Assembly (NCBI GenBank): GCA_949752745.1
Contig: OX457024.1
Coordinates: 108,802,287 to 108,866,286 of the forward strand
Source of the DNA: Protula sp. h YS-2021
Taxonomy: Eukaryota; Annelida; Polychaeta; Sabellida; Serpulidae
Length of the DNA stretch: 64,000 nucleotides
Direction: 5' to 3'
In this document: positions 40,301-59,900 of the stretch, piece by piece
Layout of the letters: each line of letters opens with the position of its first letter
Position numbering within the stretch: the first letter of the stretch is position 1
Translations under genes and position numbers: made by a program
The notes under the pieces: generated by a model
What the model saw: the letters and a program-made list of their open reading frames with translations, nothing else
Told to the model about the DNA's origin: nothing
The model's database searches: none

Positions 40301-40450
40301 ATGCGCTTTCATTACCATTTCTACCTCACAAATAGTGTACTGCATTGCTACCTGTAGCTAAGAATTTGTCCTTAAAAATACCATTTCAAGCTTACCCATA
40401 TTGTGTGCCACCATGTGTGAAGCCAAAATAATTATTTGCAGCCATTTTCT
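37351..40450. repeat. Repeat-rich intergenic block
   Basis: 37960-38060 and 39360-39440 are related (CTTCAAA...CTCGCTATATAAC...GTCAACT). 38175-38740 matches 11386-12315. 38980-39170 is inverted relative to 11930-12135. 39770-40130 matches 36410-36800. No gene recognised. Confidence 0.6.
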
Positions 40451-41700
40451 TTTCTGCAAAAATGGCTTCCCTCGTGTTATGAGTCACGTGACAATCATAC
40501 GCGGATACGTGCAAATTGCCAGTATTCACATTATCTTTAAAGAAACAACCCGCTAAACATCAGAACGTTTTTTTTTTTTGGTTGTGAAAAGGTTATAACA
40601 TTTTTCTAACCCAAAACTAACCTTTTTTGGTTGCAAAAAACGTTATTTTGAGCAATTAAATAAAAACATTCTTTTACAAACCAAAAACAAACCTATCTGG
40701 TTGTAAAAACGTTACATTCACCAACCAAATAAAAACGTTTTTTCACAAACAAAAAAACAAACGTTTTTGCATTAGAACGTTATTAAAATCTATGTTTAAA
40801 TAACAAAAACAAACCAAAACCAAACCAAAAACAAACGTATTCTATTAGAACGTTATTGATATCAATTTTTAAAACAGGCATATAGTGGAACGTCATGGAA
40901 ATTTAAAAGGTATTTTAATACTATTTTAAATTAATTTTAGATATCAATAATTTATTAGCAATAATAAAGAAATCCAATGTCATATATTGTAACATCAAGG
41001 AATTTTATAGGTATTTTAATACTTTTGCAAAGTTATTTTAGATATCAATAATTTATTTGCAATTAATATACAGGAATATTATGTATGTGAATGTTGTGTA
41101 TATGTGTAGCCAGTGACTTCCGGTTGTAAGTAAAGACATGGCGGCAACCTGGCGTCTGTTTAGTTTCAATTAGTGTTTCAACATTGCCACCTTAGGCATA
41201 TAACAAATGGCGACGAGCAAATCGTGTTGCGTCGGACCGAAGAGGCTATGAGGATCTGGTGGAGAAGAAAGACGCAGAGGAAAGTACCGAAGATAACGGA
41301 AAAGTGAGTGTTTGCTGAAGTGACTTCTGAATGATGGCATCACTGATCGGACGATTGGAGTCCTTCGACGAAACTGCTGGTGACTGGGAGCTGTACAAGG
41401 AGAGGTTAGAGCAGTATTTCATTGCCAACGACGTAGCCAACGACAAAAAAAGGTGCTGTAACTCTTAGTCTGATTGGCGGAAAGACTTATTCCTTGCTAC
41501 ATAGCCTGTGTTCATCTAACAAGCCATCTACAAAGACATTCGAGCAAATTGGTGAGTTGCTGCATAACATTTCAGTCCAAAGCCCAACGTGATAGCAGAG
41601 AGATACCGGTTCTACAAGCGTCAGCAACAGACGGGTGAGTCGGTGACAGATTACGTGGGTTGTCTCCAAAAGCTGAGTGAGCATTGTGAGTTCGGTGAGC
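40450..41700. repeat. Left copy of a 1,251-bp direct repeat flanking the young Ty3/gypsy element
   Basis: Matches 55742-56992 at a constant offset of 15,292 bp, with no difference that I could see. It holds ~640 bp of genomic flank, the 114-bp LTR (41092-41205) of the old element, its primer-site region and the start of its gag. Confidence 0.93.
41087..41699 (+). pseudogene. 5' fragment of the old Ty3/gypsy element (target site, LTR, gag start)
   Basis: Target duplication GTGAA 41087-41091, LTR 41092-41205 (TGTTGTGTAT...CATATAACA). Gag starts near 41333 (MASLIGRLESFDET, WELYKERLEQYF), with a frameshift after an A-run near 41450. It is cut at 41700 by the LTR of the young element. Confidence 0.85.
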
Positions 41701-41960
41701 ATTTTATCTTGAAAACGATTTTGGCCTCTTTTTGGTTTCACCCCGTTGACCCGTATAAAACCCCGTGCCCTTCCTGGGGGCTCTCTCTCTCACCTCCTGA
41801 CCGCAAGCAGCAACAGCAACAGCATAGTTAAGACGAGCACGGCAAAGCCCCGGGGTAGAGCCAGAGTGAGAAGTTGCACGCGGCATTATGTAAGTTTATT
41901 TAAGTACTGTATTCTATAATATTTCCTATTGTCTTCTGCATTCCTGGTTGTAGAACGACA
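41700..41960 (+). repeat. 5' LTR of the young element, 5'-truncated
   Basis: Aligned base for base with 55478-55738. It has a TATA-like CCGTATAAAACC near 41752 and ends GAACGACA. An AATAAA motif (41960-41965) forms across the LTR/leader border. Confidence 0.9.
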
Positions 41961-44251
41961 ATAAATGGTACCAGAAGTGTTTTTGGGTATCGAATCTCAC
42001 GGGAAAAAATAATTAAAAAGTGAAAGAGGACATTCAAAGTCACCTTGACTGTCATTGAAGACAGGGTACTCGATAATTATTTCTACGCGTGCATTTATGC
42101 GCATGATCCTTCTGCGCGAATAGCCGGAAAAGAAGGTGAAGGCCATATTTGTTTTTATTGTTCGAAATTGAAAGAATAGTTAATTTTTTTTAAATTTTGG
42201 CCTTGTAACTGAATATATTCTTTAAAAACCATAAGTTTCGAATAAAGGATAAAAGTTTTAGTAAAACTGTAATAACCGTTTTTATACGAAGGTAAGCTGA
42301 AAAGCTGTTCCATAACGGGAGGTTAACACACGTGGTAAAAAATTAACCGTATTCTCGTTATACTTCATTTTCGTAGAAAATGACACTAAGTACGGAATAA
42401 AGCACTAATTTCTGCGTCCATAGATATATACTTTTATATAGTTCCTGTGCGAAAGGTATTAGAATTTAACAATTTTCCGCGAAATCTCGTAGTTTCGTAA
42501 CACCAGCCTGAGTCTTCGAACTTCGTACTAAGAATCTACGGGAGTCGCAGTACGAATATGAGTTGCAGTTCTATTTTGATATATCGCTCCACGTAATCCT
42601 TTGTGAAATTGCCGCAATTTTTGCGTATTTATCGTATACTTGGTCGGTTATTTTCGAAAAGCAAATCATTTTTTTATTTGGGCGCGGAAATAGTATAAAG
42701 GAATAGGTAACACAGCTCCAAGTAGCTCTCATTAATACGCAAAACCACATTTCAAATTTAGCATCAGTTTTTATTTCTGTTTCATATATAAAAAATATAT
42801 ACGTATAAATTTATTATTTTTTACTATACAGTAATGATTCCAAGTACCTCTTCGCCAGATTCGACTCTCTTAAACTAAAGTCTGAAACATTATACATCCT
42901 ATCTAAAGTTACGATTATATTTCGGTGAAGCAATTCATTTTATGTAATATATGTATGAGATTCGATTCCCAAGGTTACCAACAATATCGTACTAACAACA
43001 TAAACTAATATTTCCATATCCCGTCGTCCAAGGGGCCCGCCGAATCTGAATGAATGTGACGGAATAATGATTGTGTGTTTCTTATTTTATTTTTATCGTG
43101 CTTCATAGATTTATACTGTGTGGAAATCAATTTCATTATTTCTATATATTTAGCTGCTATACCACAGCGTAATTTCTGAATATTATTCGCTATTTGCTTC
43201 ATTTATTTAGCTGTTATACCACAGCGAATTTCATTTTCCTTTGATTCTATTTATGCTTGATTTGATTTCATTCTTTCACTATATTTAGCTGTTTTACTAC
43301 AGCGTAATTTCTAAATTTTCTATTTGTTATTTCCTTCATTTATTTAGCTGTTATACCACAGCAAATTTGATTTCTCCTTTGATTCTATTTATGTTAAATT
43401 TGATTTCTTTATTTCAATATATTTAGCTGTTTTACCACAGCGTAATTTCTAAATTTAGTGATTACTACTTGCTTTATTTCATTATCTGTTAAACCACACG
43501 GAATTTGATTTCTTCCAAAGCATATAGGCTTTCAAAAAAAAAAAAAAAAAAGGGGAGAGGAAAACTCTCCATGATTTCTTTTCGTTCCTTTGTCTAATAC
43601 TTATACTAATCCTCTTATTGTTGGTAATCTAAGTTTATATTCAAAGAAATTTGAATAGACGCTTAAAACACTGTAACAGTCATTAGTTAATGCTGATAGT
43701 AGCATGAACTAAGCATTTTTCTCCCTAGCAATAGGATTCCTTGTTGCTTCATGAAAATCAGCATTGTGTAGTTCTAGAAATAAACAGTATATATATTTCT
43801 CTTTCCTTATAAACAGAATTTAGTACTGTCTCATGGAAATAGACAGTTTAAGTACTGTGTAGTTATAGAAATAAACAATATATATCTATTCTCCTCTTGT
43901 AAATATTATATTTTCCTTTCCTTTTCCTAGAAATAGAATTTAGTACTGCCTCGTGAAAATAGGCAGTTTAGAGTTCTAGAAATAAACAAGTATAAGTATA
44001 TATTCTTGAAATTCTATGTGTTTCGTGGTGCCTACAAACACTGCTTTTATCCTAGCAATAGATATTACCCTAGTGATAGGTTATTTCTTTTGTGCATGTG
44101 AATAGTGGGTATCATGTGTATGCCTAGAGGTATAGGTATTTCTTTTCCTTAGTTTTCTTCCTGTACGTGTTTGCACATAGCTGTAGAGTAGATTTAAGTA
44201 GATTTAAGATTAGATAAGGTAGTTAAGTTGAAAGGAGGTGTTTGTGGACAA
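41961..44251 (+). other. Long leader of the young element
   Basis: The primer-binding region TGGTACCAGAAGTG starts about 5 bp after the LTR; the tRNA is not identified. 43140-43500 repeats TATTTAGCTGTTATACCACA then GCG about six times. 43740-44000 repeats a module with TTCTAGAAATAAACA and TAGTACTGTCTCATGGAAAT. No long ORF. Confidence 0.75.
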
Positions 44252-47173
44252 ATGGAATCGGACTCTGAATACAACGGTTTTGTGTATAAACACAAAGACT
44301 TGGGGAGTACCCCTGAAACAGTTCCAATGTCTTTGGCAACAGGCGGAGACACGGGAACTAGTTTCAAACCAGATGGGTTAACATCCACACCTATATCACC
44401 TTCACTTGGTGAAATACAAAGACTCACTGAACATTTGGTAAGCCTGCGGGGTGCTTTGTCACCCTCACACCAACTTTCATCACCTATCGGAAACGATACG
44501 GTTTCCGACGGGCGACCACGACTTCAACAGTTATCAACTGATCAGCATAGATCAATTACAATGCAGTACACACCACCATTTAACCAGACCTCCACATTGC
44601 CGAATTCACCGGCAGGCACAATTCAAGTCAAACCTAGCATAACTCAAACCTGTTTCAGTGCAGAACTCAAAGCCAGGGGGGATAACCCAAATCCATCAAC
44701 ATGGTCAATTCCTGAGATTACAAAAAACATAGTTGACCTTCGGAGAGATGTTGAAATTACAAAAACTAGCTTTGAAAAGTTTGAAGACGATTATAGGAGA
44801 GGAGATCAGGTATGTTTAATACATTTTAGCAAAAAGATGAACAGATTTGGAGATAGGCTAACACAGGTCGAGTCAAATTGCAATAATGTACTGACCCAGA
44901 TGAACACCTTTAGCGATAAGGTCGTCTCGGATCTTGGTCATTTTCAGTCTCAAATAGACCAGACAAAAACTTTTGTGGCTACGGAAATCAAGAAGGTGGG
45001 GGAACATTTGGATGAAAAAATTGAACCCTTGCAAATTACAATAGCCAGTATGGAACAAACCCTAGCCAAGGTTGAACGGCTTTTGGAAGGCCAATCAGAA
45101 ATTCGTGCCATGGTGCACTTGAGTGACGAGTTGCAAAATCGTTACTTAAGTAGACACCAGGATCGAGCAGGACAACCTGAAATCTTTAGGCACCGAGATA
45201 CATCGTTGCTCCACAATGAACACAGTATCACTAATCCACTCGACACACCTCATGATTATCCAGTTCCTCCTCCGATCACACGAGTAGGGACACAGGATGT
45301 ACGAACTCATAACTCTGGAATTAGTCAGTCAGTTCTCAATGCAACGTTTCCCCAACCATTTTCCAATGATACCGCACCAACAGACACGACAAATCCTTTG
45401 TCTCATAACCAACCAAACACAACTTCCCTACATAAGCAGTGCAACAATAGAACGCCGTCAACTAGGCATATTGACAGTGTTCACATTCCAGCAAACACGA
45501 ATCAGATTGCTAGTGATGCATCGCCAACTAGTCATATTGGATGTGTGTCAGGCGCAAATGATGCTAGCAATAACTTAGAACAGGGTCATACAGTGACATC
45601 TAGTAATAGTGTCAATGCCCCTAAAGCGTCTGGCGACAACGCAGATGACAAAGATCAAAATACTGTTATTTCAGGGCAAACACAAGACGAAAATAAAACA
45701 GAAAAACCACAACAAAAATCAGACAAATCCCTTCCGAGCAAATATCAAATTTACCAACAATTTCAAAAACTTAACAAGTTCACTGGTTCTTCCGAAGACA
45801 ATAACTGGATAACATTTATCCATTACTTCGAGCGGTTGTGCCAGTGGAACAATTGCTCTGATGAAGACAAGGCACAGTATTTAGGGGACTGCCTCAGTAG
45901 CCATGCTGCTGATTACTTTGCTTCGCTACCCCTAGAGCAACAGACGAACTACGAAGTACTTAAAAATAACTTAGAAAAGCGCTTTTACAAGAAGGAGGAC
46001 CCAAGGTCAATCAGGAAAAAATTCTTGACTTTAAAACAGAAGTCAGGAGAAACTATTAATGAGTTTGCGGACAAAATTAGGAAGCTAGGTATGGAGGGGA
46101 TGGAAGGAATTAGTCAGGAAATGATGGATCAAATGGCAGCGGACGCCTTCTTAGATGGTGTACAGCATAAGGCGGTTGCCTGGACTGTAGCCAATCAAAT
46201 GCCTACTTCTTTAGAAGAGGCCGTGCGTCTTTTAGACGTAGCATTAACCAATCAAAAAACTATTCTGGGGGACAAAAGTGTTAGGCAGCCAGGACTAGAT
46301 TCTCCGAGCGTAAGGGTAGTCCGTAAAGATGACCACGAAACAATGAAGTTGGCTGATAAAACCCGAACGTCGCCTAGCAACGTGCAACGGTCAAGAATGG
46401 ATTCAAAACAACGTTCTCCGATGAGGGATAACAATTTCAAACGCACTGAGTACTCACCACGCTCCCCTTCTAGAAATGGAAGGGTTCAAGGAGAACGTAG
46501 CGTGTACTCACAACGTCATAGCAATAGACGTGATAAGGGCTTCCAAGGGCCCAGTGCATATTCACCGCGTTCCCCCTATCGGACTGACCATAATTACGAC
46601 GGATATTCCTCATACCGACATTCCCCTTACAGATATGAGCGTGAGTGGGAAGAACGTGATGTTTTTTCACGTTCTCCATACAGGAACGAAGGAGAACACT
46701 GGAATAAAAATGTGGGTTATTCCAGGTCCCCTCGTCAAAATTTTGAGAGGGATTCGCGGTCTCCTGAGACCTATAGATCTGTTTACCGATCACCCGATAG
46801 GAATTACAACCGTTCCCCCAGGTTTGAGAACGGCAGGGACTATGGACAAGTAGAGCGACCCGAATACAGGACATTAGGTAGTGCCCCTTCACAGAGGTAT
46901 AGCCGTAGGGAAGAAGGTCCTTACACAAGTGACAAGGACACTCGAAGCTCAATGACGTCTATTGATTCAAAGCTTGATAAGCTTTGCAAAATAATGACGC
47001 AAAGTCTTTCAAATATTGGGGCGAATGAAATCGAATGTATTCGCTGTGGCGGTAGAGGACATTTCGCCCGAGATTGTGCTACTCAGATTAGTCCTAGAGG
47101 ACGATTTAGTTCACCCCGTTCCAAACGCATAGCATTCACAGAACCGGTAAAAGAGAGAGGGTCGAACTCTTAG
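44252..47173 (+). CDS. gag: Gag of the young Ty3/gypsy element
   Basis: Structural protein forming the particle around element RNA; about 973 residues from the ATG at 44252 to TAG at 47171. Visible parts in order: a Ser/Thr/Pro-rich N terminus, a coiled-coil-like region (about 44730-45120), a Asn/Ser/Thr/Gln-rich stretch, a retrotransposon capsid domain (WITFIHYFERL, YEVLKNNLEKRFYKKEDPRS, INEFADKIRKLG), an Arg/Ser/Tyr-rich tract with many SPR/SPYR repeats (about 46370-46900), and a zinc knuckle CIRCGGRGHFARDC (CX2CX4HX4C). It is longer than typical Ty3 Gag. The pol frame overlaps its last ~64 bases in the minus-one frame. Confidence 0.93.
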   Translation: MESDSEYNGFVYKHKDLGSTPETVPMSLATGGDTGTSFKPDGLTSTPISPSLGEIQRLTEHLVSLRGALSPSHQLSSPIGNDTVSDGRPRLQQLSTDQHRSITMQYTPPFNQTSTLPNSPAGTIQVKPSITQTCFSAELKARGDNPNPSTWSIPEITKNIVDLRRDVEITKTSFEKFEDDYRRGDQVCLIHFSKKMNRFGDRLTQVESNCNNVLTQMNTFSDKVVSDLGHFQSQIDQTKTFVATEIKKVGEHLDEKIEPLQITIASMEQTLAKVERLLEGQSEIRAMVHLSDELQNRYLSRHQDRAGQPEIFRHRDTSLLHNEHSITNPLDTPHDYPVPPPITRVGTQDVRTHNSGISQSVLNATFPQPFSNDTAPTDTTNPLSHNQPNTTSLHKQCNNRTPSTRHIDSVHIPANTNQIASDASPTSHIGCVSGANDASNNLEQGHTVTSSNSVNAPKASGDNADDKDQNTVISGQTQDENKTEKPQQKSDKSLPSKYQIYQQFQKLNKFTGSSEDNNWITFIHYFERLCQWNNCSDEDKAQYLGDCLSSHAADYFASLPLEQQTNYEVLKNNLEKRFYKKEDPRSIRKKFLTLKQKSGETINEFADKIRKLGMEGMEGISQEMMDQMAADAFLDGVQHKAVAWTVANQMPTSLEEAVRLLDVALTNQKTILGDKSVRQPGLDSPSVRVVRKDDHETMKLADKTRTSPSNVQRSRMDSKQRSPMRDNNFKRTEYSPRSPSRNGRVQGERSVYSQRHSNRRDKGFQGPSAYSPRSPYRTDHNYDGYSSYRHSPYRYEREWEERDVFSRSPYRNEGEHWNKNVGYSRSPRQNFERDSRSPETYRSVYRSPDRNYNRSPRFENGRDYGQVERPEYRTLGSAPSQRYSRREEGPYTSDKDTRSSMTSIDSKLDKLCKIMTQSLSNIGANEIECIRCGGRGHFARDCATQISPRGRFSSPRSKRIAFTEPVKERGSNS

Positions 47174-50100
47174 GCCCTGTGGTGTCGACCCGGAAATCGA
47201 TAAGAAAGGGCCTAATTGACCTCGGCTCCAGAAGTGACGTTGATGTAAGAGGTTGTCCAAATTTGCAAGGTATATCAGAGTCACATTACGAGACTTTACG
47301 GTATGACACAGTGAGAGAAGTAACGTTACTGAAGTCCGAGCCTAACGATCTGACACCTGTAATTGACATCAGTCTAAATCATCAGCAGGTAAGGGCTGTT
47401 GTCGATAGCGCGGCACAAGTAACTGTAATGAGTGAGAAGCTCTACCATTCATTAGCTACACCACCAAAATTATTAGAAGCTATTCGATTGAAAGGTGCAG
47501 GCGAAAATCAATATTTTAGGGCCCATTTGGCAATGAGTATTCGTTTCAAAATTGGTTCGCAATTCTTCGCCCTTGACAGGATATATGTAGCCCCAATCAC
47601 GGACGATTTGATTCTGGGTATAGACTTCATGAACAAATACAAAATAACAATTGATTTAGGTAATAATGTTTTCAAGATTAAAAATGAAGAAATTCCAATT
47701 AAATTGATGAAGAATTCTACAGGGAAGGAAGTCCAGGTCAGCAGGGTTTTCCTGATAAAGAGGGTTAAGGTACCGGCTAATACCTCCATTATGGTCTTGG
47801 GTAGTACCACTCTTGCAGGAGAGGGGGACGTTGTCTTGGAAGGTACTACAAACCACAAAGGGTTATTGATGCCGAGAATTTTGACAAAGTCCGCGAATAA
47901 TATCCTGGGAGTTTTAACCAACCTCAGTGATAATCCCAAACTGCTGAAGAAAGGACATTTTTTGGGAGTAGCAATGCAGTCGGGAGAAATCCTGGAGTCT
48001 AGTGATCTGGCAGGATCGGACGTTCGGTTAAATGTGCCGGAGACTGAGAAATCGTCTGCCGGTTTGCTAGTGTTTGAGTCGGACATCGAGAGCTCATGTC
48101 CTGACTCTGCTATTCAAGTGGGTGATACTGAGAAATCGTGTCATGGGTTATTCACAGTAACCTCGGACATCGAGAGCTCATGTCCTGACTCTGCTATTCA
48201 AGTGGGTGATACTGAGAAATCGTGTCATGGGTTATCCACAGTAACCTCGGGCATCGAGAAATTGTGTCCTCAGTACTCTACACTGGCTGTGCAAGCCAGT
48301 GAAACCGAGACATCGTCCCGTAGGACTCATGGCTCTGAAGTTTTGACATGCAGGCGTGAACCTGCGGAAGCCCCCCCAGGGGTACCTGTTATTCGGAGAA
48401 CAGGGGGTGATGCGTCCACTGATCCTCGAACGCTTACCCTAGACGAGTGGAAGCGAACACTTCCAAGTCATGTACAGGAGTTATTTATGACTTCCAGTCA
48501 GGATTTAAACATTGGACAGTGCGTGGAACTTGCAAAATTCCTCAAAGAATTCCAATCAGTGTTTGCTAGGGATGATGACGACTTGGGGTTTTTCTCAGGG
48601 GTTACTCACCGAATCGATACGGGAAATGCGACTCCAATACGACAACAAATGCGCCGAACACCTTTGGGTTTTCAGGAGGAAGAGGAGAAGCATTTGAATA
48701 AGATGCTAGATATGGGAGTCATTCGTGAATCGAATTCTGAGTGGGCTAGTCCCCCGGTGCTGGTTCGGAAGAAGGACGGGTCGGTGCGATGGTGCATCGA
48801 CTATCGGAAACTTAACAACGTAACTGTAAAGGATGCTTTTCCTTTGCCTAGAATCCAAGAATGTTTGGACTCCCTAAGCGGAAACGCATTTATGAGTTCC
48901 ATAGACCTCCAATCGGGATACTGGCAGTTGGGTGTTCATCCAGACGATATTCACAAAACTGCGTTCATCACCAAATACGGGTTGTATGAACATGTTAGAC
49001 TTCCGTTTGGTTTATGTAATGCACCCGCGACCTTCTCTAGGGCCATGCAGTTAGTCCTTAGAGGACTAACGTGGAATGTAGTTCTTGCTTATTTAGATGA
49101 TATCGTGATTCTAGGAAAGTCTTTCGATGAGCATATCGACAATCTACGCGAAGTCTTTACACGATTCAAGACTTTTGATTTGAAGCTGAAACCCAGAAAA
49201 TGTGCCCTATTTAAAACGGAGATCGAATTCTTAGGCAGAATAGTGAACAGGAAGGGAATCACGGTCCACCCAAATCATATTGAAAAGGTTAGGGATTGGC
49301 CTGAGCCGAAGACGGTCAATGAAGTCGAAAAATTCTTAGGATTTGTAAATTATCACAGAGATTTCCTGAAAAATTTGGCAGAAGTTTCATCAAGTTTGTA
49401 TGAATTGACGAAAAAGAATGTGGAATTTATATGGACAGACAGACATCAGGAATCCTTTGATACTCTGAAAGAGATGCTGATAAACGCGCCAACTTTAGGG
49501 TTTCCGGACCAGACTTCCAAATTTATTTTAGATACCGATGCATCGTTGACCTCTATTGGCGGTCAACTCAGTCAAATAAAGCCCGATGGATCGGAAGTCG
49601 TCATCAGTTACGGTTCGTTGGTACTCAATCCAGCCCAAAGAAATTACTGTGCAACCAGACGCGAGTTGCTGGCGGTTGTACGATTTACTAGACAATTTAG
49701 GCATTATCTTTTAGGGCGTTCTTTTTATGTTCGGACCGATCACAATTCATTGACCTGGCTAACAAGATTTAAAAATATTCAGGGTATTTTGGCGCGGTGG
49801 CTTGAAGAGTTAAGCCAGTATGATATGGTCATATTACATCGTGCTGGCGTTAAACATGTGAATGCCGATGCTCTTTCACGCATACCCGATGAATTGCGAT
49901 TTTGTAACTGCTATGAAGCCGGAAAGGATCTTAGTAGTTTGCCTTGTGCTAAGAATGGGATCCCGTGCAAATTTTGCCAAAGAGCCCATGTCGAATGGGC
50001 CCGATTTGAGGAAGACGTTGACGATGTTATCCCTCTGGCCGCGAAAGCACCAGGGAATGCATCTTTAATGCTGAGACAAATAGTTCCTGATGAAACTGGA

Positions 50101-51678
50101 AACATTTCGTCAGAACATTGGCTCCCTGGATATTCAGCAGCGGAATTAGCCGAGTTGCAAAGACATGACCCAGTAGTTGGCACTTTGCTGAAATGGATGG
50201 ACAAACAAACAATAGACGAGGATGAGTTTGCCTTAGCAAGTCCGGGAGTTAAGAAATTTTGGCAATGCAACTCCCAGTTGGTGATTCGAAACGGTTTATT
50301 GTACTATCAATGGGATCAAGATCCGCATCCACCGAAATATCTGTTTATGGTTCCAGAAAGTATTGTCAGCGAAATTCTTGGATTTTGCCATGACAATACT
50401 CTGGCTGGTCATTTAGGTTTTGATAAAACTTTACACAAAATTAAGCAATCCTTTATTTGGTACCACATGGCGACAGATTGTAAAGATTATGTCAAATCCT
50501 GTGGTGTTTGCAACAAACAGAAAAAATCTACCGTTAAACCCAAAGCCGAAATGCAGAGCTACCACGTATCAGCCCCAATGGAGAGGATTCACATCGATGT
50601 GTTGGGCCCTTTCGTCCCAAGCAAACGTGGCAACCTTTACATTCTAATGATGGTTGACCAGTTTACAAAGTGGATTGAATGTTACCCTATCCCAGATCAA
50701 TCAGCCGAAACAGTGGCGAAAACCACAGTTGATGGATTCATTTCTAGGTTCGGGTGTCCTCTGCAAATATTTACAGATCAGGGTAAAGCTTTTGATGGAA
50801 AGCTTTTCCGCGCAGTTTGTGACCTCCTGCAAATCTCCAAATTGAGAACCACTCCATATCATCCTGCCTCAAACGGGCAGGTGGAACGATACAATAGAAC
50901 AATATTGCAGATGATTCGATGTTTCTTGAATGAGAAACAAAATACTTGGGATGATCATTTGCAACAGCTTGCGGGAGCCATTAGAGCTTCTCCTAACCGA
51001 CAAACTGGGTTCACACCCAATATGTTAATGTTGGGTAGGGAAGTCTGGCAACCCGTTGACCTTTATTTTCAAGGTTGGGTCAAATCGGATTTAAGCGAGC
51101 CGGAGTATGTCAAGACGTTGCGGAGAGAGATGCTTAAGGCACAAGAAACTGCCAGAACCACTTTGAAAATGACCCAGAGGAGACAGAAGAAAGATTACGA
51201 CTTAAAATTACACCAGACTAAATTTTCTGTGGGTGACACAGTGTACAGACTAAATAACGTATCGAAAGTTGGTCAAAGCAATAAATTGAAAGCTCCTTGG
51301 AGCGGCCCTTTCCTAGTAGTCGAGATTTTGTCGCCAGCATTGATAAAAATTAAGGACAGAAAGAGGGAATTGGTAATACATCACAATAATGTGAAGTTAT
51401 GCCAAGATAGAGCTCTACCCTTATGGCTTAGAAAGCTTCGGCATAGCCTATTTGCGCAGGGAACTGGGGAAGAAATCGATAGGGACAATGATGAGGGATC
51501 CGGGAGTGACAGTTATGATTTGGACCTCCTCTTTAACGGTAGTAATGACAGACCGGAAATGCAGCAATTAGAAAATTCACAATGTGCCGTTATTCCAGAC
51601 ATAAGTATCCCTGAACGAAAAACACGTACAGGAAGGGCAACTAAGAAACCTAAGTATCTAGATGAATTCACCAGTTGA
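47110..51678 (+). CDS. pol: Pol polyprotein of the young Ty3/gypsy element
   Basis: Open from 47110 (after TAG at 47107), with no ATG near the start. It overlaps gag in the minus-one frame, so a gag-pol frameshift is likely, although I see no textbook slippery heptamer. Numbering from codon 47179: protease D76-S-A; a linker with tandem ESSCPDSAIQVGDTEKSCHG repeats (48077-48265); reverse transcriptase with VRWCIDYRKLN, FGLCNAPATF and YLDD at 638-641; RNase H with DTDAS (D787); integrase with an HHCC zinc module (HDNTLAGH...CGVCNKQ) and D1140, D1200, E1236 (35 residues between the last two); a C-terminal domain with GPFLVVEI. All catalytic residues are present. Confidence 0.95.
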   Translation, partial: FTPFQTHSIHRTGKRERVELLGPVVSTRKSIRKGLIDLGSRSDVDVRGCPNLQGISESHYETLRYDTVREVTLLKSEPNDLTPVIDISLNHQQVRAVVDSAAQVTVMSEKLYHSLATPPKLLEAIRLKGAGENQYFRAHLAMSIRFKIGSQFFALDRIYVAPITDDLILGIDFMNKYKITIDLGNNVFKIKNEEIPIKLMKNSTGKEVQVSRVFLIKRVKVPANTSIMVLGSTTLAGEGDVVLEGTTNHKGLLMPRILTKSANNILGVLTNLSDNPKLLKKGHFLGVAMQSGEILESSDLAGSDVRLNVPETEKSSAGLLVFESDIESSCPDSAIQVGDTEKSCHGLFTVTSDIESSCPDSAIQVGDTEKSCHGLSTVTSGIEKLCPQYSTLAVQASETETSSRRTHGSEVLTCRREPAEAPPGVPVIRRTGGDASTDPRTLTLDEWKRTLPSHVQELFMTSSQDLNIGQCVELAKFLKEFQSVFARDDDDLGFFSGVTHRIDTGNATPIRQQMRRTPLGFQEEEEKHLNKMLDMGVIRESNSEWASPPVLVRKKDGSVRWCIDYRKLNNVTVKDAFPLPRIQECLDSLSGNAFMSSIDLQSGYWQLGVHPDDIHKTAFITKYGLYEHVRLPFGLCNAPATFSRAMQLVLRGLTWNVVLAYLDDIVILGKSFDEHIDNLREVFTRFKTFDLKLKPRKCALFKTEIEFLGRIVNRKGITVHPNHIEKVRDWPEPKTVNEVEKFLGFVNYHRDFLKNLAEVSSSLYELTKKNVEFIWTDRHQESFDTLKEMLINAPTLGFPDQTSKFILDTDASLTSIGGQLSQIKPDGSEVVISYGSLVLNPAQRNYCATRRELLAVVRFTRQFRHYLLGRSFYVRTDHNSLTWLTRFKNIQGILARWLEELSQYDMVILHRAGVKHVNADALSRIPDELRFCNCYEAGKDLSSLPCAKNGIPCKFCQRAHVEWARFEEDVDDVIPLAAKAPGNASLMLRQIVPDETGNISSEHWLPGYSAAELAELQRHDPVVGTLLKWMDKQTIDEDEFALASPGVKKFWQCNSQLVIRNGLLYYQWDQDPHPPKYLFMVPESIVSEILGFCHDNTLAGHLGFDKTLHKIKQSFIWYHMATDCKDYVKSCGVCNKQKKSTVKPKAEMQSYHVSAPMERIHIDVLGPFVPSKRGNLYILMMVDQFTKWIECYPIPDQSAETVAKTTVDGFISRFGCPLQIFTDQGKAFDGKLFRAVCDLLQISKLRTTPYHPASNGQVERYNRTILQMIRCFLNEKQNTWDDHLQQLAGAIRASPNRQTGFTPNMLMLGREVWQPVDLYFQGWVKSDLSEPEYVKTLRREMLKAQETARTTLKMTQRRQKKDYDLKLHQTKFSVGDTVYRLNNVSKVGQSNKLKAPWSGPFLVVEILSPALIKIKDRKRELVIHHNNVKLCQDRALPLWLRKLRHSLFAQGTGEEIDRDNDEGSGSDSYDLDLLFNGSNDRPEMQQLENSQCAVIPDISIPERKTRTGRATKKPKYLDEFTS

Positions 51679-51727
51679 AGACGAGATAACCTAGGGAGTA
51701 GTTAAGTTGTTTAGTGTACTTAAGGAA

Positions 51728-51740
51728 TTTACTTTTCAGG
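51728..51740 (+). promoter_or_regulatory. Candidate 3' splice site before the third ORF
   Basis: A pyrimidine-rich TTTACTTTTCAG|G sits 61 bp after the pol stop. Reading frame requires two bases of a codon from the upstream exon. Good donors inside gag at 44437 (TTG|GTAAGC) and 44810 (CAG|GTATGT) are phase 0 and would not fit, so the donor is unknown. Confidence 0.55.
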
Positions 51741-54641
51741 AATTCTACAGCTCCCAGCATCACGGACCCCAATTTTGATCCCTTTTCCTTTCCTAACAAC
51801 GATAAAGTTTGCGAAGTTTGTTTCACCTGCGATCATAATTTTTTGGACGAAAATTGTCCCGCGCGTTATCGGAAGGAAGTCCCCAGCATTGTAAATCCTC
51901 GATTTGATACCCGTTCCTTCCCGCAAGATGGTGTGGTGTGTGAGGTTTGTTTCAGTCATGGTCATCAGTTTTTAGATACGAATTGCCCCGCTCGCTCCCA
52001 TTTCAAGATCGGGATTATAACTAGTTTTAAAGGGCCGAACTGTGTTCTGAGCAACCTCTATCCGTGCAAAATCTTAATATACGGGCATTGTTTCAAGTCC
52101 GTCGAGCATGCCTACCAATACCGGAAATGTCTGGAGTTCAATCGGGATAAAATAGCCTATAAAATTCTGCTTGATACGGAAGATCCTGTGGAGGCAAAGC
52201 GCTTGACGCACGGCATAGGGAGCCCTAGGTGGGACAACATGAGAGTTGGAATAATGGAGGAGATAATACAAGTGAAATTGAGGAACGTGCCGGAGTATCG
52301 AGATGCTCTACTGGCTGCCGAGCCGATAATAGCGGAGGCCGTCCCAAATGCTTACTTTTGGTCAGCCGGGTTGAGTGCGAGTGACCTGATGTGGACGCGT
52401 GTCCAGTCGTGGCCGGGGAAAAACATAATGGGACAAATTCACATGAGGGTGCGCGAACAGCTCAAGTGTGAGTTGGGGTATAGCAGTGCTGGTGCTCCGC
52501 CCTGCACCGTTGGTGATTCGAACGCTTCCTTGAACATTCCGGAAGATGCGACTGTCGCAGCCCCTCCACACGAACGAAACGTAACAGTAACGACTCATTG
52601 TGACGATTCTGAACTCCCCGCCGCACCTGTTGCACCTGATGTTACGCCTTCGAATGTTGCCTGCGTACCGACGATTGACGTTTCCACCACACACGCGCCT
52701 CGTGTTTCAACGTTATCTGAACTCTCCACTGTGCCCGTTACGCCCTCGAATGTTGCCTGCGTACCGACGATTGACGTTTCCACCACGCACGCGCCTCGTG
52801 TATCGACGCTATCGAGAACAGCTACCTCCTCCATCAACGTGTCGTCTCGATCCAGCCGTCAAAAGAAAAAGCCTGTGTGTCCGTTACGTTCATTTACTCA
52901 GTGCAACTGGAGTGCCAACAACGTGACACGTCATCTTTCTCGCCAGCATTGTTCGCCTTATCTTTTTAAACGTGACGATTTGGGCCCGGTGAAGGAACGT
53001 TGCGAACAAATCCTGAAATTCTTGACGCAAATCGCGACATTATTAAACGTACTTGACGTTAGCGACCTTCCTCTTTTCATGCGGCAAAATCATCTGTCAG
53101 TGGCTCCGTCGGAGCAGGTGGGTCCATTACACCGAGCAATCGTGGAAGAATTCCACCTGTTTCTGGCGGATCCACTACCTAGTCAAAGTATTGACTTTCA
53201 TACGTCGAATTGTCTGTCGGCTCTTGCGTGGTACAAGAACGTACTCTTACTTTACTCGAAACTATCTCCGACTGATCTTGAACTTTTAGCGGAAAATTAT
53301 GCTTCTCAACGTCGAGTCGATCTAGTACATACTGATGAACCACCATCTGACGTTAATATGGATTTTCCGAGAGACGTTACCACAACATCTACGTCCTCGT
53401 ATATCGGTAGTGACGTACAGTGCGCCAACGCAGAGCAAGCGCCCATCACCGCAACATCTACGTCTTCGTGTATCGGTAGTGACGTACAGTGCGCCAACGC
53501 AGAGCAAGCGCTCATCACCGCAACATCTACGTCTTCGTGTATCGGTAGTGACGTACCGTGCGCCAACGCAGAGCAAGAGCCCACCACCACAACGTCCACG
53601 TCTTCGTGCATCGTTAAGGACGTACCCTGTGTTTACGTAGATCAAGGGGCCGGCAGCAATTCGGATCATAAGAATACGAGTAATTCCTCCCATCATAACG
53701 TATCATTTCCAGTTGCCATTAATGACGTCAACGTAGACGCTACGCTGAATCGAAATCAAGATGGAACGTACTCCTTGACGTATGACGATCCGTATGAATA
53801 CGTTGTGTATGGTGCCGACGCTCACTGCCATCTAGAAAAACTCGCTGAAAAATTGGGAAAAACCATACCTTTCGATCAGCTTTTAGGGGGGACCCCAGCG
53901 AACAGAGAGCTTCAATACGTAGTCACGTCGTTTTGCTATCCGACTAGTTTTCCGTGTCATGAAGTGCGCGAACAGATTCTCGGAAATTGCCGTTTCTTTA
54001 CCTGTATTGGTTACCACCCAAAATTAGTCAAAGCCCAGAATCCGAACATGGAAATTATCCAAACGATAGTAGATGCCGTTGAAACCTGTCCAAAAGTCGT
54101 TGCCATAGGGGAAATTGGTTTAGATTACTCAATAGAAGGGTCAAACAAGAAAGCGCAACAGATAATTTTAAAAGAACTTTGTATTCTGGCAAAACAACGA
54201 GGACTGCCTATAGTCATACATTGTAGAGAACATGCGAAATACAATCCCCTTCAAGCCTCTTTGGATTGTCTGAATATACTATGGGAAATACTGCCCCAGG
54301 ATTATCCCATCTACAAGCATAGTTTAGTCAACAATATTGAAGCGAACCTGTGGACCTCTAGATTCTCCAACGTTATTTTCGGCATCAATGGGATTCTCTT
54401 TTATAAGAACTTGACCTATTTTGATTCTCTTGGCACGTTCTTGACAGTGGGAAATCTCCGTAGAATGGTTTTAGAATCTGACGCCCCACATCTTCACCCT
54501 TACGGTCAACAGAACACAAATTTTCCTTCATCAATTTTTATTATTGCCGACAAAATTGCAGAGCTTCTAAAAATCGACGTGAAAATTGTCTTACAGAGCA
54601 CCCTCAATAACGTAATAGAATTCTTCAAAATTCCGAGTTGA
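51740..54641 (+). CDS. Third ORF: zinc knuckles, NADAR domain and TatD-type nuclease
   Basis: The frame is open from 51702, but its first ATG lies deep inside the NADAR domain. A good acceptor (TTTACTTTTCAG|G) ends at 51739, so translation probably needs splicing to an upstream exon. Numbering from 51714 (975 codons): two CX2CX4HX6C modules at 33-48 and 76-91; NADAR at about 102-250 (VLSNLYPC, SVEHAYQYRKC, WDNMRVGIMEEI, NAYFWSAGL, NIMGQIHMRVREQL); Ser/Thr/Val-rich repeats; a C2H2-like finger (CPLRSFTQC...HLSRQHC); tandem TSSCIGSDVQCANAEQ repeats; a TatD domain at about 695-975. The TatD metal ligands are all present: H704 and H706 (DAHCHL), E800 (GEIGLDY), H836 (VIHCRE), H869 (KHSL), D923 (ESDAPHL). 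Known NADAR proteins act on ADP-ribose-linked N-glycosidic bonds and TatD proteins are metal-dependent nucleases. The role here is inferred only. Confidence 0.92.
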
Positions 54642-55413
54642 ACCATTTTTGAATTATTGCAGTTGGGTTGAGAAATCACCCGAAGTGTATCTATCGCTGA
54701 GAAATCGCTATTAGTTACCGGATTGACGAATTATTAGACGTGTATTATTGAATTATTGCAGATGGGTCGAGAAATCACCCGAACTGTATCTGTCGCTGAG
54801 AGATCGCTATCAATGTTTGTATGTATTCTGTTTATATTCCCGCTTTTGCTTGGCTTATTAACTTGGCCGAGAAATTGGCCAAATGGTGAATATTTGTAGA
54901 ATTGCCGTTAGACTTGCATGTATTCTGTTTATATTCCCGCTTTTGCTTGGCTTATTAACCTGGCCGAGAAATTGGCCAAATAATGAATTTTTGTAGAATT
55001 ATCGTTCGACTTGCATGTATTTATATTCGCGCTTTTGCTTGGCTAACTAATTTGGCCGAGAAGTTGGCCAAGGGATAGAAGTTCGTAGAAACGCCCTTAG
55101 ATCTGCGTGCATTCTGTTGATATTTCTAATTGCGCTCGAGCTATTAACCAATGGTCGTAAAGGTAGTTAAGAAATCTACATTTGTAGATGTGCTTGACCG
55201 GGGAGTCTGTTATAGTCGAGCAATCGCTGTAACAGGTAATATTAGTAGCGCAGACGGGCATGCCTGTATTGTAGCTAATAGGGCATGTAACATGTCTGAA
55301 GATTGGATTGATTTCTTATTTTGAATGCTCTTAAGTATTCATTCTGTGCTTTTCTCCTTCTCATTGATCATGCATGTATATATGTTCGTGTGAGTGTAGT
55401 GTGAACGGGGGGT

Positions 55414-55451
<38 letters not shown>

Positions 55452-55460
55452 GGGGGGTAG
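54642..55460 (+). other. 3' UTR of the young element with GAGAAAT hairpin series and purine tract
   Basis: Two ~105-bp units (GAATTATTGCAG...GAGAAATCACCCG...) are followed by three ~90-bp units (CCCGCTTTTGCTTGGCT...TTGGCCGAGAAATTGGCCAA). An ATCTACATTTGTAGAT hairpin lies near 55172. The region ends in CGGGGGGTTAAATT, an A-run of about 30, and the purine tract CGGGGGGTAG directly before the LTR. Confidence 0.85.
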
Positions 55461-55738
55461 TGTTGTAAAGGTTGGACCATTTTATCTTGAAAACGATTTT
55501 GGCCTCTTTTTGGTTTCACCCCGTTGACCCGTATAAAACCCCGTGCCCTTCCTGGGGGCTCTCTCTCTCACCTCCTGACCGCAAGCAGCAACAGCAACAG
55601 CATAGTTAAGACGAGCACGGCAAAGCCCCGGGGTAGAGCCAGAGTGAGAAGTTGCACGCGGCATTATGTAAGTTTATTTAAGTACTGTATTCTATAATAT
55701 TTCCTATTGTCTTCTGCATTCCTGGTTGTAGAACGACA
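55461..55738 (+). repeat. 3' LTR of the young element
   Basis: 278 bp, starts TGTTGTAAAGG after the purine tract, ends GAACGACA. No differences from the 5' LTR over the shared 261 bp. Confidence 0.92.
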
Positions 55739-55741
55739 ATA

Positions 55742-56992
55742 TTTTCTGCAAAAATGGCTTCCCTCGTGTTATGAGTCACGTGACAATCATACGCGGATAC
55801 GTGCAAATTGCCAGTATTCACATTATCTTTAAAGAAACAACCCGCTAAACATCAGAACGTTTTTTTTTTTTGGTTGTGAAAAGGTTATAACATTTTTCTA
55901 ACCCAAAACTAACCTTTTTTGGTTGCAAAAAACGTTATTTTGAGCAATTAAATAAAAACATTCTTTTACAAACCAAAAACAAACCTATCTGGTTGTAAAA
56001 ACGTTACATTCACCAACCAAATAAAAACGTTTTTTCACAAACAAAAAAACAAACGTTTTTGCATTAGAACGTTATTAAAATCTATGTTTAAATAACAAAA
56101 ACAAACCAAAACCAAACCAAAAACAAACGTATTCTATTAGAACGTTATTGATATCAATTTTTAAAACAGGCATATAGTGGAACGTCATGGAAATTTAAAA
56201 GGTATTTTAATACTATTTTAAATTAATTTTAGATATCAATAATTTATTAGCAATAATAAAGAAATCCAATGTCATATATTGTAACATCAAGGAATTTTAT
56301 AGGTATTTTAATACTTTTGCAAAGTTATTTTAGATATCAATAATTTATTTGCAATTAATATACAGGAATATTATGTATGTGAATGTTGTGTATATGTGTA
56401 GCCAGTGACTTCCGGTTGTAAGTAAAGACATGGCGGCAACCTGGCGTCTGTTTAGTTTCAATTAGTGTTTCAACATTGCCACCTTAGGCATATAACAAAT
56501 GGCGACGAGCAAATCGTGTTGCGTCGGACCGAAGAGGCTATGAGGATCTGGTGGAGAAGAAAGACGCAGAGGAAAGTACCGAAGATAACGGAAAAGTGAG
56601 TGTTTGCTGAAGTGACTTCTGAATGATGGCATCACTGATCGGACGATTGGAGTCCTTCGACGAAACTGCTGGTGACTGGGAGCTGTACAAGGAGAGGTTA
56701 GAGCAGTATTTCATTGCCAACGACGTAGCCAACGACAAAAAAAGGTGCTGTAACTCTTAGTCTGATTGGCGGAAAGACTTATTCCTTGCTACATAGCCTG
56801 TGTTCATCTAACAAGCCATCTACAAAGACATTCGAGCAAATTGGTGAGTTGCTGCATAACATTTCAGTCCAAAGCCCAACGTGATAGCAGAGAGATACCG
56901 GTTCTACAAGCGTCAGCAACAGACGGGTGAGTCGGTGACAGATTACGTGGGTTGTCTCCAAAAGCTGAGTGAGCATTGTGAGTTCGGTGAGC
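55742..56992. repeat. Right copy of the 1,251-bp direct repeat
   Basis: Matches 40450-41700. It starts immediately after the 3' LTR and runs without a break into the rest of the old element. Confidence 0.93.
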
Positions 56993-59900
56993 GTCTAGCA
57001 GAGCACCTCAGAGATCAGCTGGTTTGTGGGATAAAGAACGAAAATGTCCTGAAAAGATTGTTGTCGGAGAAACAATAAACCTACCAGAAGGCCAAGGAGA
57101 TAGCAATTGCCATGGAAATGGCCATGAAGGATGTATCGGGAATCCAAGGAGCATCGGCAAATGTTAACAAGTTGCAGAGGACCACTGGAAATCGTTGTTT
57201 CAGGTGTGGCAGGAATGGTCATGGCCCCGAGGATTGCCGTTTTAAGGACGAGAAATGTCACAACTGCGGTAAGAAAGGCCACATTAAGAGAAGATGCAAG
57301 ATGAAAAAATCCGGTAAGTCATCTTCCGAGAGGAAAAAGACCGGGACAGACCAGTTTAAGAAGCGAAAGCCAAAGAAGAAAGTTATTTATGTTGATGACG
57401 ATGAAGTGACCACTGATAGTGAAGATTCTAATGGCGACAGCACTTCCTGTTCAGATCTCGGCTATACGGGAGTTGTTTGCGATGTAAAAAACAATAGCGA
57501 GAGGAAATGTGCGTCCATTACGATCAGTCCTAAAATAAACGGTAAAATGATCAAAATGGAGCTTGATACAGGATCTGCGCTTTCGATAATATCGAAAAGG
57601 GATTATCAGCGCCATCTTGGTAAATTAAGGCTGCGGAGAACAAATGTTGTGTTAAAAACCTATACTGGAGAATGTGTAAGGCCAGAGGGGTACGTGAATG
57701 TTCTGGTGGAACACTAGGGTAAGGAACATCGTTTGCGGCTGTACATTCTTCACGGGGGAGGTCCACCTTTGTTCGGTAGAGATTGGCTCCGACACATCAA
57801 GTTAAACTGGCAGGAAATCAAGTCCATACGGATGGCTCAAGGTAAGAAGAAATTAGACCATCTTCTGGAAAAGTACAGTGAGTGTTGTTTCGGCAAGGAA
57901 CTGGGTGAGCTAAAAGGGATAACTGCGAAGTTACACTTCAAAGAAGGAGTTACCCCTAAATTTTGCAAACCTAGCTAAGTCCCGTTTGCAATGAGGGGCA
58001 AGGTCGACAAGGAGCTGGACAACATGGTGAGCAAAGGGATCCTTTCACCGGTAGAGTGGAGTGATTGGGCTGCACCCATTGTCCCAATTCTGAAGAAGGA
58101 CGGTTCTGTCAGGATATGTGGCGATTTTAAAGTCACTGTCAATCCACAGCTCAATGTTGACTCGTACCCATTGCCTACTATTGAGAGCATGTTAGCAACA
58201 TTGGCAGGTGGAGAGAAATTTTCAAAGATAGACCTCAAAACGGTGTATCTTCAAATGGTAGTGGACGACGAATCGAGAAAATACCTGACCATCAACACAC
58301 AGAAAGGACTTTTTGTTTTCAATCACCTGGCGTATGGTATTTCCCCAGCTGCTTGTATTTGGCAACGCGCAATTGAACAGGTTTTAAAAGGTATCAAAAA
58401 CGTGCAGTGTATTTTGGATGACACGATAATCACCGGTTCAGACGACGATGATCACCTATGTACCCTCGAGAAAGTCTTTCAGCGATTAATAGAATACGGC
58501 CTTAAAGTCAACCCCAACAAGTGTGAGTTTTTCAAAGATTCCATTGAATTTTGTGCTCACATCGTCAACAAAGACGGAATCCACAAGACCGATTCGAAAG
58601 TCAAGGCAGTTACAGATGCGCCAGCTCCAAGAAATGTTTCGGAATTACGAAACTGGGTCGCCCTGGTGAACTACTACCACCGCTTCCTACCCAACTTGTC
58701 TACGATACTACATCCATTGCACCAGTTGCTCCACAAAAATCAGAAATGGTTATGGACAGACTCATGTGCAAAGGCTGTTAAGAAAACGAAGGATCTCATC
58801 ACATCTGATCTCGTTTTAGCACATTATGATCCGAAACTGCCGCTTCGACTGCACTGTGACGCATCATCAAAAGGTATTTCTGGAGTTGTTTCGCATATCT
58901 ACCCAGATGGAAGCGAACGCCCCATTAGGTTTGCATCCCGAACATTGTCAAAAGCTGAACAAAATTACTCACAAACCGATCGAGAGGCCCTCAGCATCAT
59001 TTGGAGCATCCAGAAATTCAACATGTACCTGTTCGCCCGAAAATTTACTCTAGTTACCGACTGCAAAGTTTTGGTTTCGGTCTTCAATCCCAAAAAAGGT
59101 ATTTCAACAACTACGGCTTCGCGGATGCAAAGATACGCCATTTTCCTTACTGGCTATAATTATGAAATTGAATACAGAAAGACAAGTGAACACGCCCACG
59201 CTGACGGGTTAAGTAGACTACCCCTTCCGGTAAGCCAGAAAAATTCGTCAGGAGAGAGAGAGCACTATTCTACGCTGCCCTACTCGACAACTTTCCGGTT
59301 TCATTCAAACAAATTGCCCAGGCAACGTCAAAAGACCAGGTATTGTCTAGAATTTTCGAGTTCACAAGAAATGGCTGGCCCGGTAAAGTTGAAGAACTTT
59401 CCCCTTATCATTCACATGAATCAGAATTATCGATTTCACAAGAGTGTCTGCTCATTGGAAACAGAGTGGTTATTCCGGAAAAGTTCCAGAGAGCATTCCT
59501 GCAAGAACTCCATAGTGCCCATCCTGGTATGGTGAAAATGAAAAAATTGGCTAGATCGTACATTTGGTGGGCCCAATATCGACAGAGATATCAAAACACA
59601 AGCTAAAATGTGCCCGAGGTGCTTAGAGATAAGCAAAGCTCCAACAAGAGCTACAGTGCACCCCTGGGAATGGCCAAGTCAGCCGTGGAAAAGGATCCAC
59701 ATTGATTTTGCAGGACCTTTTCAAGGCCATATGTTTATCATAATAGTCGATGCACACTCCAGATGGATAGAGGTACGGATCATGGAAAAAATCACTGCCC
59801 CGTAAACTGTCAAAGTACTTCAAGAACTGTTTAGCGCCTATGGAATTTGTGATGTTATCTGTACAGACAATGGTACAACCTTCCATTCTGAAGCCTTCCA

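What the first reader, a model, noticed from the sequence alone, without database searches (positions are those of the whole stretch)
51714..54641. Ty3/gypsy retrotransposon carrying a NADAR-TatD fusion protein
Directly after pol, in the env position, an intact ORF joins zinc-knuckle-like modules, a NADAR (ADP-ribose glycosidase-type) domain and a TatD nuclease whose six expected metal ligands are all present. Standard Ty3/gypsy elements encode nothing like this. NADAR proteins are known to remove ADP-ribose from nucleic acid or nucleotides, and TatD is a metal-dependent nuclease. The element may therefore carry its own ADP-ribose eraser plus nuclease, either to counter host ADP-ribosylation defence or to process its cDNA or R-loops. 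Intact catalytic residues in a young copy argue for selection.
Basis: partly seen in the sequence, partly recalled or inferred. Interest (0 to 1): 0.95.

Follow-up and report, generated by a model that had tools for sequence, protein, structure and literature searches.

The report
Retrotransposon carrying NADAR–TatD enzyme gene
A jumping gene in an animal genome carries a third gene for a protein that looks able both to strip ADP-ribose tags from nucleic acid and to cut it; the conservation of that gene suggests the element needs it, perhaps to resist or repair a host attack on its genetic material.

Summary
Between the LTRs of a Ty3/gypsy element (window 41697-55738), behind gag and pol, lies one open frame (51702-54641): two CX2CX4HX6C knuckles, NADAR (Pfam 9.5e-24), a C2H2 finger plus helical region, and TatD (1.1e-33). 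It is no chance capture. 17 of 17 LTR pairs found in the host genome enclose it. In the printed pairs of 11 intact copies pN/pS is 0.16-0.31 (pol 0.00-0.41); against two diverged copies it is 0.06-0.14 over the folded domains that could be scored and 0.7-2.1 over linkers. A decayed sister element keeps a 37%-identical ORF3 behind a 42-72%-identical pol. Two further NADAR-TatD fusions keep all ten active-site positions checked. LINEs of the same genome also carry NADAR. NADAR in brown-algal Gypsy and oyster Tx1 LINEs is in print; I found nothing on TatD cargo or on the fusion. Likely role: erase ADP-ribose from, and repair or trim, the element's own nucleic acid. That mechanism is inferred, not shown.

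The parts
41697..41960 (+). 5' LTR, lacking its first 14 nt (matches LTR positions 15-278; one mismatch, at 41699, on the edge of the flanking duplication)
41966..41979 (+). primer binding site TGGTACCAGAAGTG (tRNA-Leu-like, tRNA identity recalled)
   Evidence: read directly
44252..47173 (+). gag from first ATG (Retrotrans_gag/PNMA capsid; CCHC knuckle just under its cut-off)
47110..51678 (+). pol, frame -1 to gag: protease, RT, RNase H, H2C2 integrase, rve
51739..51740 (+). candidate splice acceptor TTTACTTTTCAG|G; with LTR donor TAT|GTAAGT (last exon base 41889) the junction would give AUG in frame with ORF3
   Evidence: inference, the acceptor ranks only 43rd of 14028 positions
51702..54641 (+). 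ORF3, stop-to-stop, 979 aa
51810..51857 (+). knuckle 1, CX2CX4HX6C (residues 37-52)
51939..51986 (+). knuckle 2, CX2CX4HX6C (residues 80-95)
52035..52466 (+). NADAR domain (residues 112-255); E135, K142, E212, W220 align with E43, K50, E125, W133 of P. nicotianae NADAR
52866..53291 (+). C2H2 finger (C393, C401, H411, H416) and helical region (residues 389-530), shared with C2H2-TatD proteins
53379..53646 (+). 69-nt in-frame tandem repeats in the second linker; 956-aa copies are shorter by 23 aa, one unit's length (where their gap lies was not checked)
53817..54629 (+). TatD domain (residues 706-976), HxH class II, six metal ligand positions present
55421..55460 (+). A-rich tract and G-run (polypurine tract)
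   Evidence: read directly
55461..55738 (+). 3' LTR, TGTTGT...GACA, 278 bp

Best explanation
ORF3 is a long-standing, selected gene of a Ty3/gypsy family. Shown: it sits between the LTRs behind pol in every LTR pair found, evolves under purifying selection, and keeps both active sites. Inferred: the protein, made from a spliced, env-like subgenomic RNA, binds nucleic acid through its knuckles and finger, uses NADAR to remove ADP-ribose from guanine bases of the element's cDNA (or RNA), and uses TatD (3'-exonuclease/AP-endonuclease class) to trim or open damaged or abasic sites. In effect it is a cDNA protection-and-repair cofactor against host nucleic-acid ADP-ribosylation. The presence of NADAR in LINEs of the same genome points to a shared pressure.
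For: Anatomy and HMMs; folds; NADAR residues at the positions studied for guanine-ADP-ribose hydrolysis; 17/17 LTR pairs; pN/pS (91); sister element with linked ORF3; two more fusion proteins at 40% and 36% identity with the same residues; NADAR in LINE ORF1 and on a LINE RT tail of the same genome. Literature: guanine de-ADP-ribosylation is conserved in eukaryotic NADARs (PMC11543638); TATDN1 and TATDN3 are 3'-exonucleases mainly on ssDNA and AP endonucleases on dsDNA (PMC10085689); DNA guanine ADP-ribosyltransferases exist in butterflies and shellfish and are proposed as immune (PMC8053099).
Against: No activity, expression or splice data. A host guanine ADP-ribosyltransferase search did not complete and the host taxon is unnamed. 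No ATG precedes NADAR in frame, and the splice signals are only moderately strong. In the paper on E. coli C7 NADAR, alanine at the first Glu had only a minor effect in vitro, so its presence proves little by itself. The knuckle before NADAR is absent from P0002 as recovered. ORF3 codon usage does not follow gag or pol (r 0.09 and 0.12, against 0.61 for gag-pol). TATDN2 is tied to R-loop RNA, so DNA repair is not the only option.
Confidence: 0.42

Rival explanations
1. ORF3 acts on the host, not on element nucleic acid: TatD resolves R-loops or cuts host DNA to favour integration or transcription, and NADAR clears soluble ADP-ribose signals.
For: TatD is HxH class II as TATDN2 and TATDN3 are; Tatdn2 loss raises R-loops in primordial germ cells (PMC12709183, abstract); viral NADARs are proposed to target soluble ADP-ribose derivatives (PMC9503650, passages).
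Against: Several retroelement NADARs sit beside nucleic-acid-binding knuckles, which fits a nucleic-acid substrate better; the same paper proposes that NADARs of eukaryotic RNA viruses mainly target macromolecular ADP-ribosylation.
Confidence: 0.22
2. The domains are kept as nucleic-acid-binding or structural parts (a second Gag-like protein) and have lost catalysis.
For: Knuckles and a C2H2 finger are present; pN/pS is lowest over the C2H2-helical region (0.06); one relative in the genome has lost TatD ligands yet stays open.
Against: The NADAR and TatD active-site positions checked are kept in all three fusions and pN/pS is low over both enzyme domains (0.09-0.14).
Confidence: 0.13
3. TatD is an offensive nuclease against rival mobile elements or unprotected nucleic acid, and NADAR a separate protective module.
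For: Two enzymes fused; the genome gives 112 TatD matches and at least 150 NADAR matches, many not of this family.
Against: TatD enzymes are not known as toxins of this sort (recalled); no self-protection partner was seen.
Confidence: 0.08
4. Chance capture of a host gene, drifting neutrally.
For: Codon usage differs from gag-pol.
Against: 17 of 17 LTR pairs carry it, pN/pS 0.16-0.31, deep conservation and linkage.
Confidence: 0.02

Closest known systems
NADAR-bearing Gypsy elements of Ectocarpus (PMC12477816, passages)
   Same: Ty3/gypsy element with a YbiA-family NADAR domain
   Different: [quoted passage not shown] here it is in a separate ORF3 behind pol, with knuckles, a C2H2 finger and TatD
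Tx1 LINEs with NADAR in ORF1 (Crassostrea gigas, PMC12477816, passages)
   Same: Retroelement NADAR; LINEs of this genome (L036, L060) also have NADAR in ORF1 (whether they are Tx1 was not tested)
   Different: The LINE-ORF1 NADARs of this genome fall apart from ORF3's; no TatD, no LTRs
Guanine-ADP-ribose hydrolase NADARs (DarT1-NADAR, P. nicotianae NADAR 8bau)
   Same: Fold and Glu/Lys/Glu active-site positions
   Different: Not an antitoxin operon; fused to a nuclease in a retroelement; activity untested
TatD class II nucleases (TATDN2, TATDN3, YcfH)
   Same: Fold and HxH metal site
   Different: Fused to a C2H2-helical region and NADAR; carried by a retroelement
Env-bearing Ty3/gypsy elements (errantivirus type, recalled)
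   Same: Third ORF in env position, possibly spliced
   Different: ORF3 encodes enzyme domains, not a recognisable glycoprotein

Membership tests
Ty3/gypsy (Metaviridae) LTR retrotransposon | Pol order protease-RT-RNase H-integrase | tested here: met
   best PDB match Ty3 Gag-Pol 7q5b, 9.6e-99, over RT-RNase H
Ty3/gypsy (Metaviridae) LTR retrotransposon | LTRs, PBS after 5' LTR, polypurine tract before 3' LTR | tested here: met
Ty3/gypsy (Metaviridae) LTR retrotransposon | Short target-site duplication of the copy | tested here: not met
   This copy: 5' LTR lacks 14 nt and a 1251-bp direct duplication flanks the element; other copies not examined for it. Not required for membership
NADAR (PF08719) YbiA type | Pfam match over gathering score, and fold | tested here: met
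NADAR (PF08719) YbiA type | Catalytic Glu, Lys and YbiA-type Glu | tested here: met
   E135, K142, E212 against E43, K50, E125; the two-residue offset between the PDB chain and the paper's numbers is my reading from the spacing
NADAR (PF08719) YbiA type | Hydrolysis of guanine-ADP-ribose | not testable with these tools
   needs purified protein
TatD class II nuclease | TatD fold, HxH motif and six metal ligand positions | tested here: met
   list of ligands recalled
TatD class II nuclease | Metal-dependent nuclease activity | not testable with these tools
   needs purified protein
Env-bearing retroelement (errantivirus type) | ORF3 is a membrane fusion glycoprotein | tested here: inconclusive
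   Pfam finds only NADAR and TatD in ORF3 and the third conserved module is a C2H2-helical region; no transmembrane or signal predictor was run
Spliced env-like expression | Subgenomic spliced RNA | tested here: inconclusive
   acceptor and LTR donor would create an in-frame AUG, but rank only 43 and 19

The most novel reading that the evidence does not exclude
Unrelated retroelements of one animal lineage (Ty3/gypsy ORF3, LINE ORF1, LINE RT tail) have repeatedly taken up nucleic-acid ADP-ribose erasers because the host marks mobile-element DNA or RNA with ADP-ribose in the germ line. The Ty3 ORF3 couples the eraser to a TatD repair nuclease. ADP-ribosylation would then be an undescribed anti-transposon defence in animals.
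Probability: 0.28. Interest if true: 0.95.

Novelty: new variant of a known kind. Interest (0 to 1): 0.82.

Why it matters
What NADAR proteins do in animals is open (PMC11125620 says so in its discussion, passages). A retrotransposon that keeps NADAR under purifying selection, in a genome where LINEs also carry it, ties the domain to a conflict over nucleic acids and makes that testable with purified domains and with assays for ADP-ribosylated guanine in germ cells. It also adds TatD, in fusion with NADAR, to the list of retroelement cargo.

Tried and rejected
Rejected: chance capture. Rejected: 'NADAR carried by Polintons': a 421-aa NADAR ORF lies beside a DNA polymerase B frame in L040/L061 (Pfam DNA_pol_B_2 20.8 bits, under its cut-off of 25.8; Polinton by eye), but reading further showed it to be ORF1 of a LINE (endonuclease and RT frames downstream in L062 and L064, recognised by eye) inserted there. 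Not followed: IMG/VR hits L001-L008 (8 loci, 23-27% identity over TatD residues only), taken as generic TatD.

Led nowhere: whole-protein homologue search alone (1 hit). Literature on TatD in retrotransposons: 1 paper; 20 of 4,036 listed; 6 papers hold both words; 2 papers; judged by title only, none about TatD as cargo. HIV/PARylation/TatD (none). A slippery heptamer of the XXXYYYZ type in the gag-pol overlap (none). Genomic context of the other TatD matches could not be fetched. An own-genome pol search and a search with PF22596 (accession recalled for scabin/pierisin-type ADP-ribosyltransferases) did not complete.

Limits of the selection test: of 20 loci L009-L028 (L009 is the window copy) 11 ORF3 copies were used; L016 and L021-L028 (partial, rearranged or split matches) were left out; L020 pol was left out because its longest open frame was 852 codons. 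Only pairs with W, L010 or L019 as first member were printed. Copies share ancestry and differences are clustered (43 synonymous differences lie in TatD for L019 and for L020; 12 of 20 W-L010 differences lie in NADAR), which suggests recombination, so the binomial p-values overstate independence. In one search minus-strand loci were read in the wrong orientation; its ORF3 numbers are void and one search replaces them. Limits of the LTR test: 40 of 63 candidates were scored; pairing was by distance and strand, so the C5:72969230-72981820 pair, inside a cluster, may not be one element.

Full report
What is there. The window is 64 kb of a genome of 863 Mb in 218 contigs (C1:108802287-108866286). 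It also holds exons that look like ZFR and a COQ8-type kinase: Pfam gives ABC1 and zf-met over their cut-offs and DZF_N under its own; the gene names, and that the host is an animal, are recalled inference from them. From 41697 to 55738 lies one Ty3/gypsy element: LTRs (278 bp; the 5' one lacks 14 nt; a 264-base run is identical between the two ends, with one mismatch beyond it at the boundary), a primer binding site at 41966-41979, gag 44252-47173, pol 47110-51678 with protease, RT, RNase H, H2C2 and rve, and a polypurine tract before 55461. RT and RNase H match Ty3 Gag-Pol best in the PDB (9.6e-99). Behind pol comes ORF3, 979 codons without a stop.

ORF3 anatomy. From N- to C-terminus: two CX2CX4HX6C knuckles (residues 37-52, 80-95), NADAR (112-255), a linker, a C2H2 finger and helical region (389-530), a second linker with 69-nt in-frame repeats, and TatD (706-976). 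The AlphaFold model of the whole protein is good over TatD (ten-residue means mostly 70-95) and poor over linkers (mean pLDDT 55, pTM 0.39, 7 sequences). Foldseek puts it on S. aureus TatD and human TATDN3 structures. The NADAR piece (pLDDT 74, 4 sequences) falls on 8bau, a NADAR with ADP-ribose (E 5e-7), and on YbiA. E135, K142, E212 and W220 line up with E43, K50, E125 and W133 of the Phytophthora enzyme. That structure and mutation of the E. [quoted passage not shown]). TatD is of the HxH class II (PMC10085689, passages).

Is it a property of the element family? ORF3 gave 73 matches in the genome, some of them pieces of one copy (47 of 2286 candidates scored, so counts are lower bounds). 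Eleven copies match over 1-979 without a stop and eight more have open frames of 924-1122 codons. The LTR gave 40 matches; 17 same-strand pairs 8-15.5 kb apart can be formed, and ORF3 lies inside 17 of 17, including an old pair only 89% identical to the query LTR. Of the six unpaired LTRs, four lie within 15 kb of an ORF3 and two (C5:79860224, C6:70752154) do not, as solo LTRs would.

Selection. Over the 11 copies used, ORF3 pN/pS is 0.16-0.31 in the printed pairs that have synonymous differences; for example W-L010 has 13 synonymous and 7 nonsynonymous differences, W-L019 59 and 39, W-L020 54 and 37. For pol the printed ratios are 0.00-0.41 (the two zeros rest on one difference each). Pairs with no synonymous difference have no ratio. 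By domain, W-L019 gives NADAR 0.09, C2H2-helical 0.06, TatD 0.12, against knuckles 0.66 and linkers 0.95 and 2.11. W-L020 gives C2H2-helical 0.06, TatD 0.14 and linkers 0.76 and 0.69; its NADAR and knuckles have one nonsynonymous and no synonymous difference each. The caveats (shared ancestry, clustered differences, copies dropped) are in Tried and rejected.

Deep history. A decayed sister element (L055, C3:34685000-34694000) has pol segments 42-72% identical and directly behind them an ORF3 remnant 37% identical over residues 88-616; no TatD match was found in that stretch. In the protein database two more NADAR-TatD fusions exist: P0015 (738 aa) and P0002 (761 aa), 40% and 36% identical to ORF3, with ten of ten positions checked (E135, K142, E212, W220, six TatD positions) identical. 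P0015 starts MAYIRSLTSPDFDP, which lines up near the candidate splice acceptor. Four further proteins (P0003, P0008, P0011, P0013) have the C2H2 finger and TatD without NADAR; in that alignment P0003 lacks the H873 equivalent. Their genomic contexts are not available here.

Expression. No ATG precedes residue 180 in frame. A sequence TTTACTTTTCAG|G ends at 51739, and the LTR holds TAT|GTAAGT with last exon base 41889; joined, they would read ...AU|G AAU UCU in frame. By a generic consensus the acceptor ranks 43rd of 14028 positions and the donor 19th, and better-scoring sites exist (for example a donor at 42291), so this is a proposal only. The acceptor is unchanged in six of six other copies printed, but so is most of the surrounding sequence.

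NADAR and TatD elsewhere in the same genome. The NADAR model gives at least 150 matches (150 of 2193 candidates scored); by my count 21 of the 150 coincide with ORF3 places. I read 14 of the others or their surroundings (L031-L040, L056, L058-L060). A 421-aa ORF with C-terminal NADAR is followed by endonuclease and RT frames, recognised by eye, in the two places looked at (L036 with L064, L040 with L062). A 599-aa ORF with C-terminal NADAR (L060) has Exo_endo_phos (over cut-off) and RVT_1 (under cut-off) downstream. An 824-codon frame has RVT_1 and zf-RVT (both under their cut-offs), a knuckle and NADAR (L056). L058 and L059 end in knuckle-NADAR and are unassigned. A tree of ten NADAR domains has one split at 100/99 between a group of seven (ORF3, P0002, P0015, P0001, L056, L058, L059; six of seven with the knuckle) and the LINE-ORF1-type three (L031, L036, L060). 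L060 is on a long branch, the tool warns of false joins, and forks inside the group of seven are mostly weak. I read this as at least two entries into, or moves between, retroelements. TatD gives 112 matches, some of them pieces of one locus; among them are open frames of equal length (467 codons three times, 487 three times, 456 twice) outside this family, which suggests further repeated TatD families, not examined.

Known or new. NADAR in Gypsy Pol of Ectocarpus and in ORF1 of oyster Tx1 LINEs is in print (PMC12477816, passages); its authors call the role unclear and suggest RNA processing. No paper in the held library (CC-licensed PubMed Central) holds both NADAR and TatD, and the few papers that hold TatD with retrotransposon or gypsy are, by title, on other subjects. 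Subscription literature and Repbase were not searchable. I therefore call it a new variant of a known kind: a retroelement with an accessory enzyme ORF, with a fusion not described before as far as I could search.

Mechanism. Guanine de-ADP-ribosylation is conserved in eukaryotic NADARs (PMC11543638, summary). TATDN1 and TATDN3 cut abasic dsDNA and trim mainly ssDNA (PMC10085689); TATDN2 is tied to R-loops and germ-cell genome stability (PMC12709183, abstract; PMC12754012, passages). DNA guanine ADP-ribosylation occurs in butterflies and shellfish and is proposed as immunity (PMC8053099, passages). From these I infer a protein that keeps the element's cDNA or RNA free of ADP-ribose and of lesions. 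A host-directed role (R-loops, ADP-ribose signals) is the main rival. Neither is shown.

Noticed in passing
40450-41700 and 55742-56992: A 1251-bp, 100% identical direct duplication flanks the element; it lies directly upstream of a second Ty3-type element's gag/RT frames (57079-59535). The 5' LTR lacks its first 14 nt and 3 nt (ATA) follow the 3' LTR's CA, as in an unprocessed cDNA end. This looks like integrase-independent capture or an assembly error, not ordinary integration.
   Followed up: partly
L053:5711-8395 (-), C4:69708716-69710695: A single 894-codon open frame with two C2H2-helical modules and a TatD domain whose HxH, catalytic Glu and IH.R positions are changed (by eye); no gag or pol similarity in L053-L054. 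Candidate host-domesticated, catalytically dead relative of ORF3.
   Followed up: partly
L036, L040, L056, L060 (genome C3, C2, C3, C2): LINE-like elements of the same genome carry NADAR at the C-terminus of ORF1 or behind the RT zinc finger.
   Followed up: partly
L058:4680-7967 (-): A 1096-codon frame ending in knuckle-NADAR, rich in Ser/Arg before it, with no other Pfam domain.
   Followed up: no
genome C3:97512415-97527525: Eight copies of an ORF3 fragment (residues 37/38-147/148), each in a 132-codon open frame, spaced 2.0-2.1 kb apart: a tandem array made from part of ORF3.
   Followed up: no
genome C5:72943000-72982000: Cluster of at least four ORF3 copies and four LTRs in both orientations within 40 kb.
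   Followed up: no
genome, one search list (e.g. C8:38701176, C3:79309234, C10:19951360): TatD in open frames outside this family, some of equal length in several places; context not fetched.
   Followed up: no
51702-54641: ORF3 codon usage does not correlate with pol or gag (r 0.12 and 0.09; gag-pol 0.61), although it is under selection with them.
   Followed up: no
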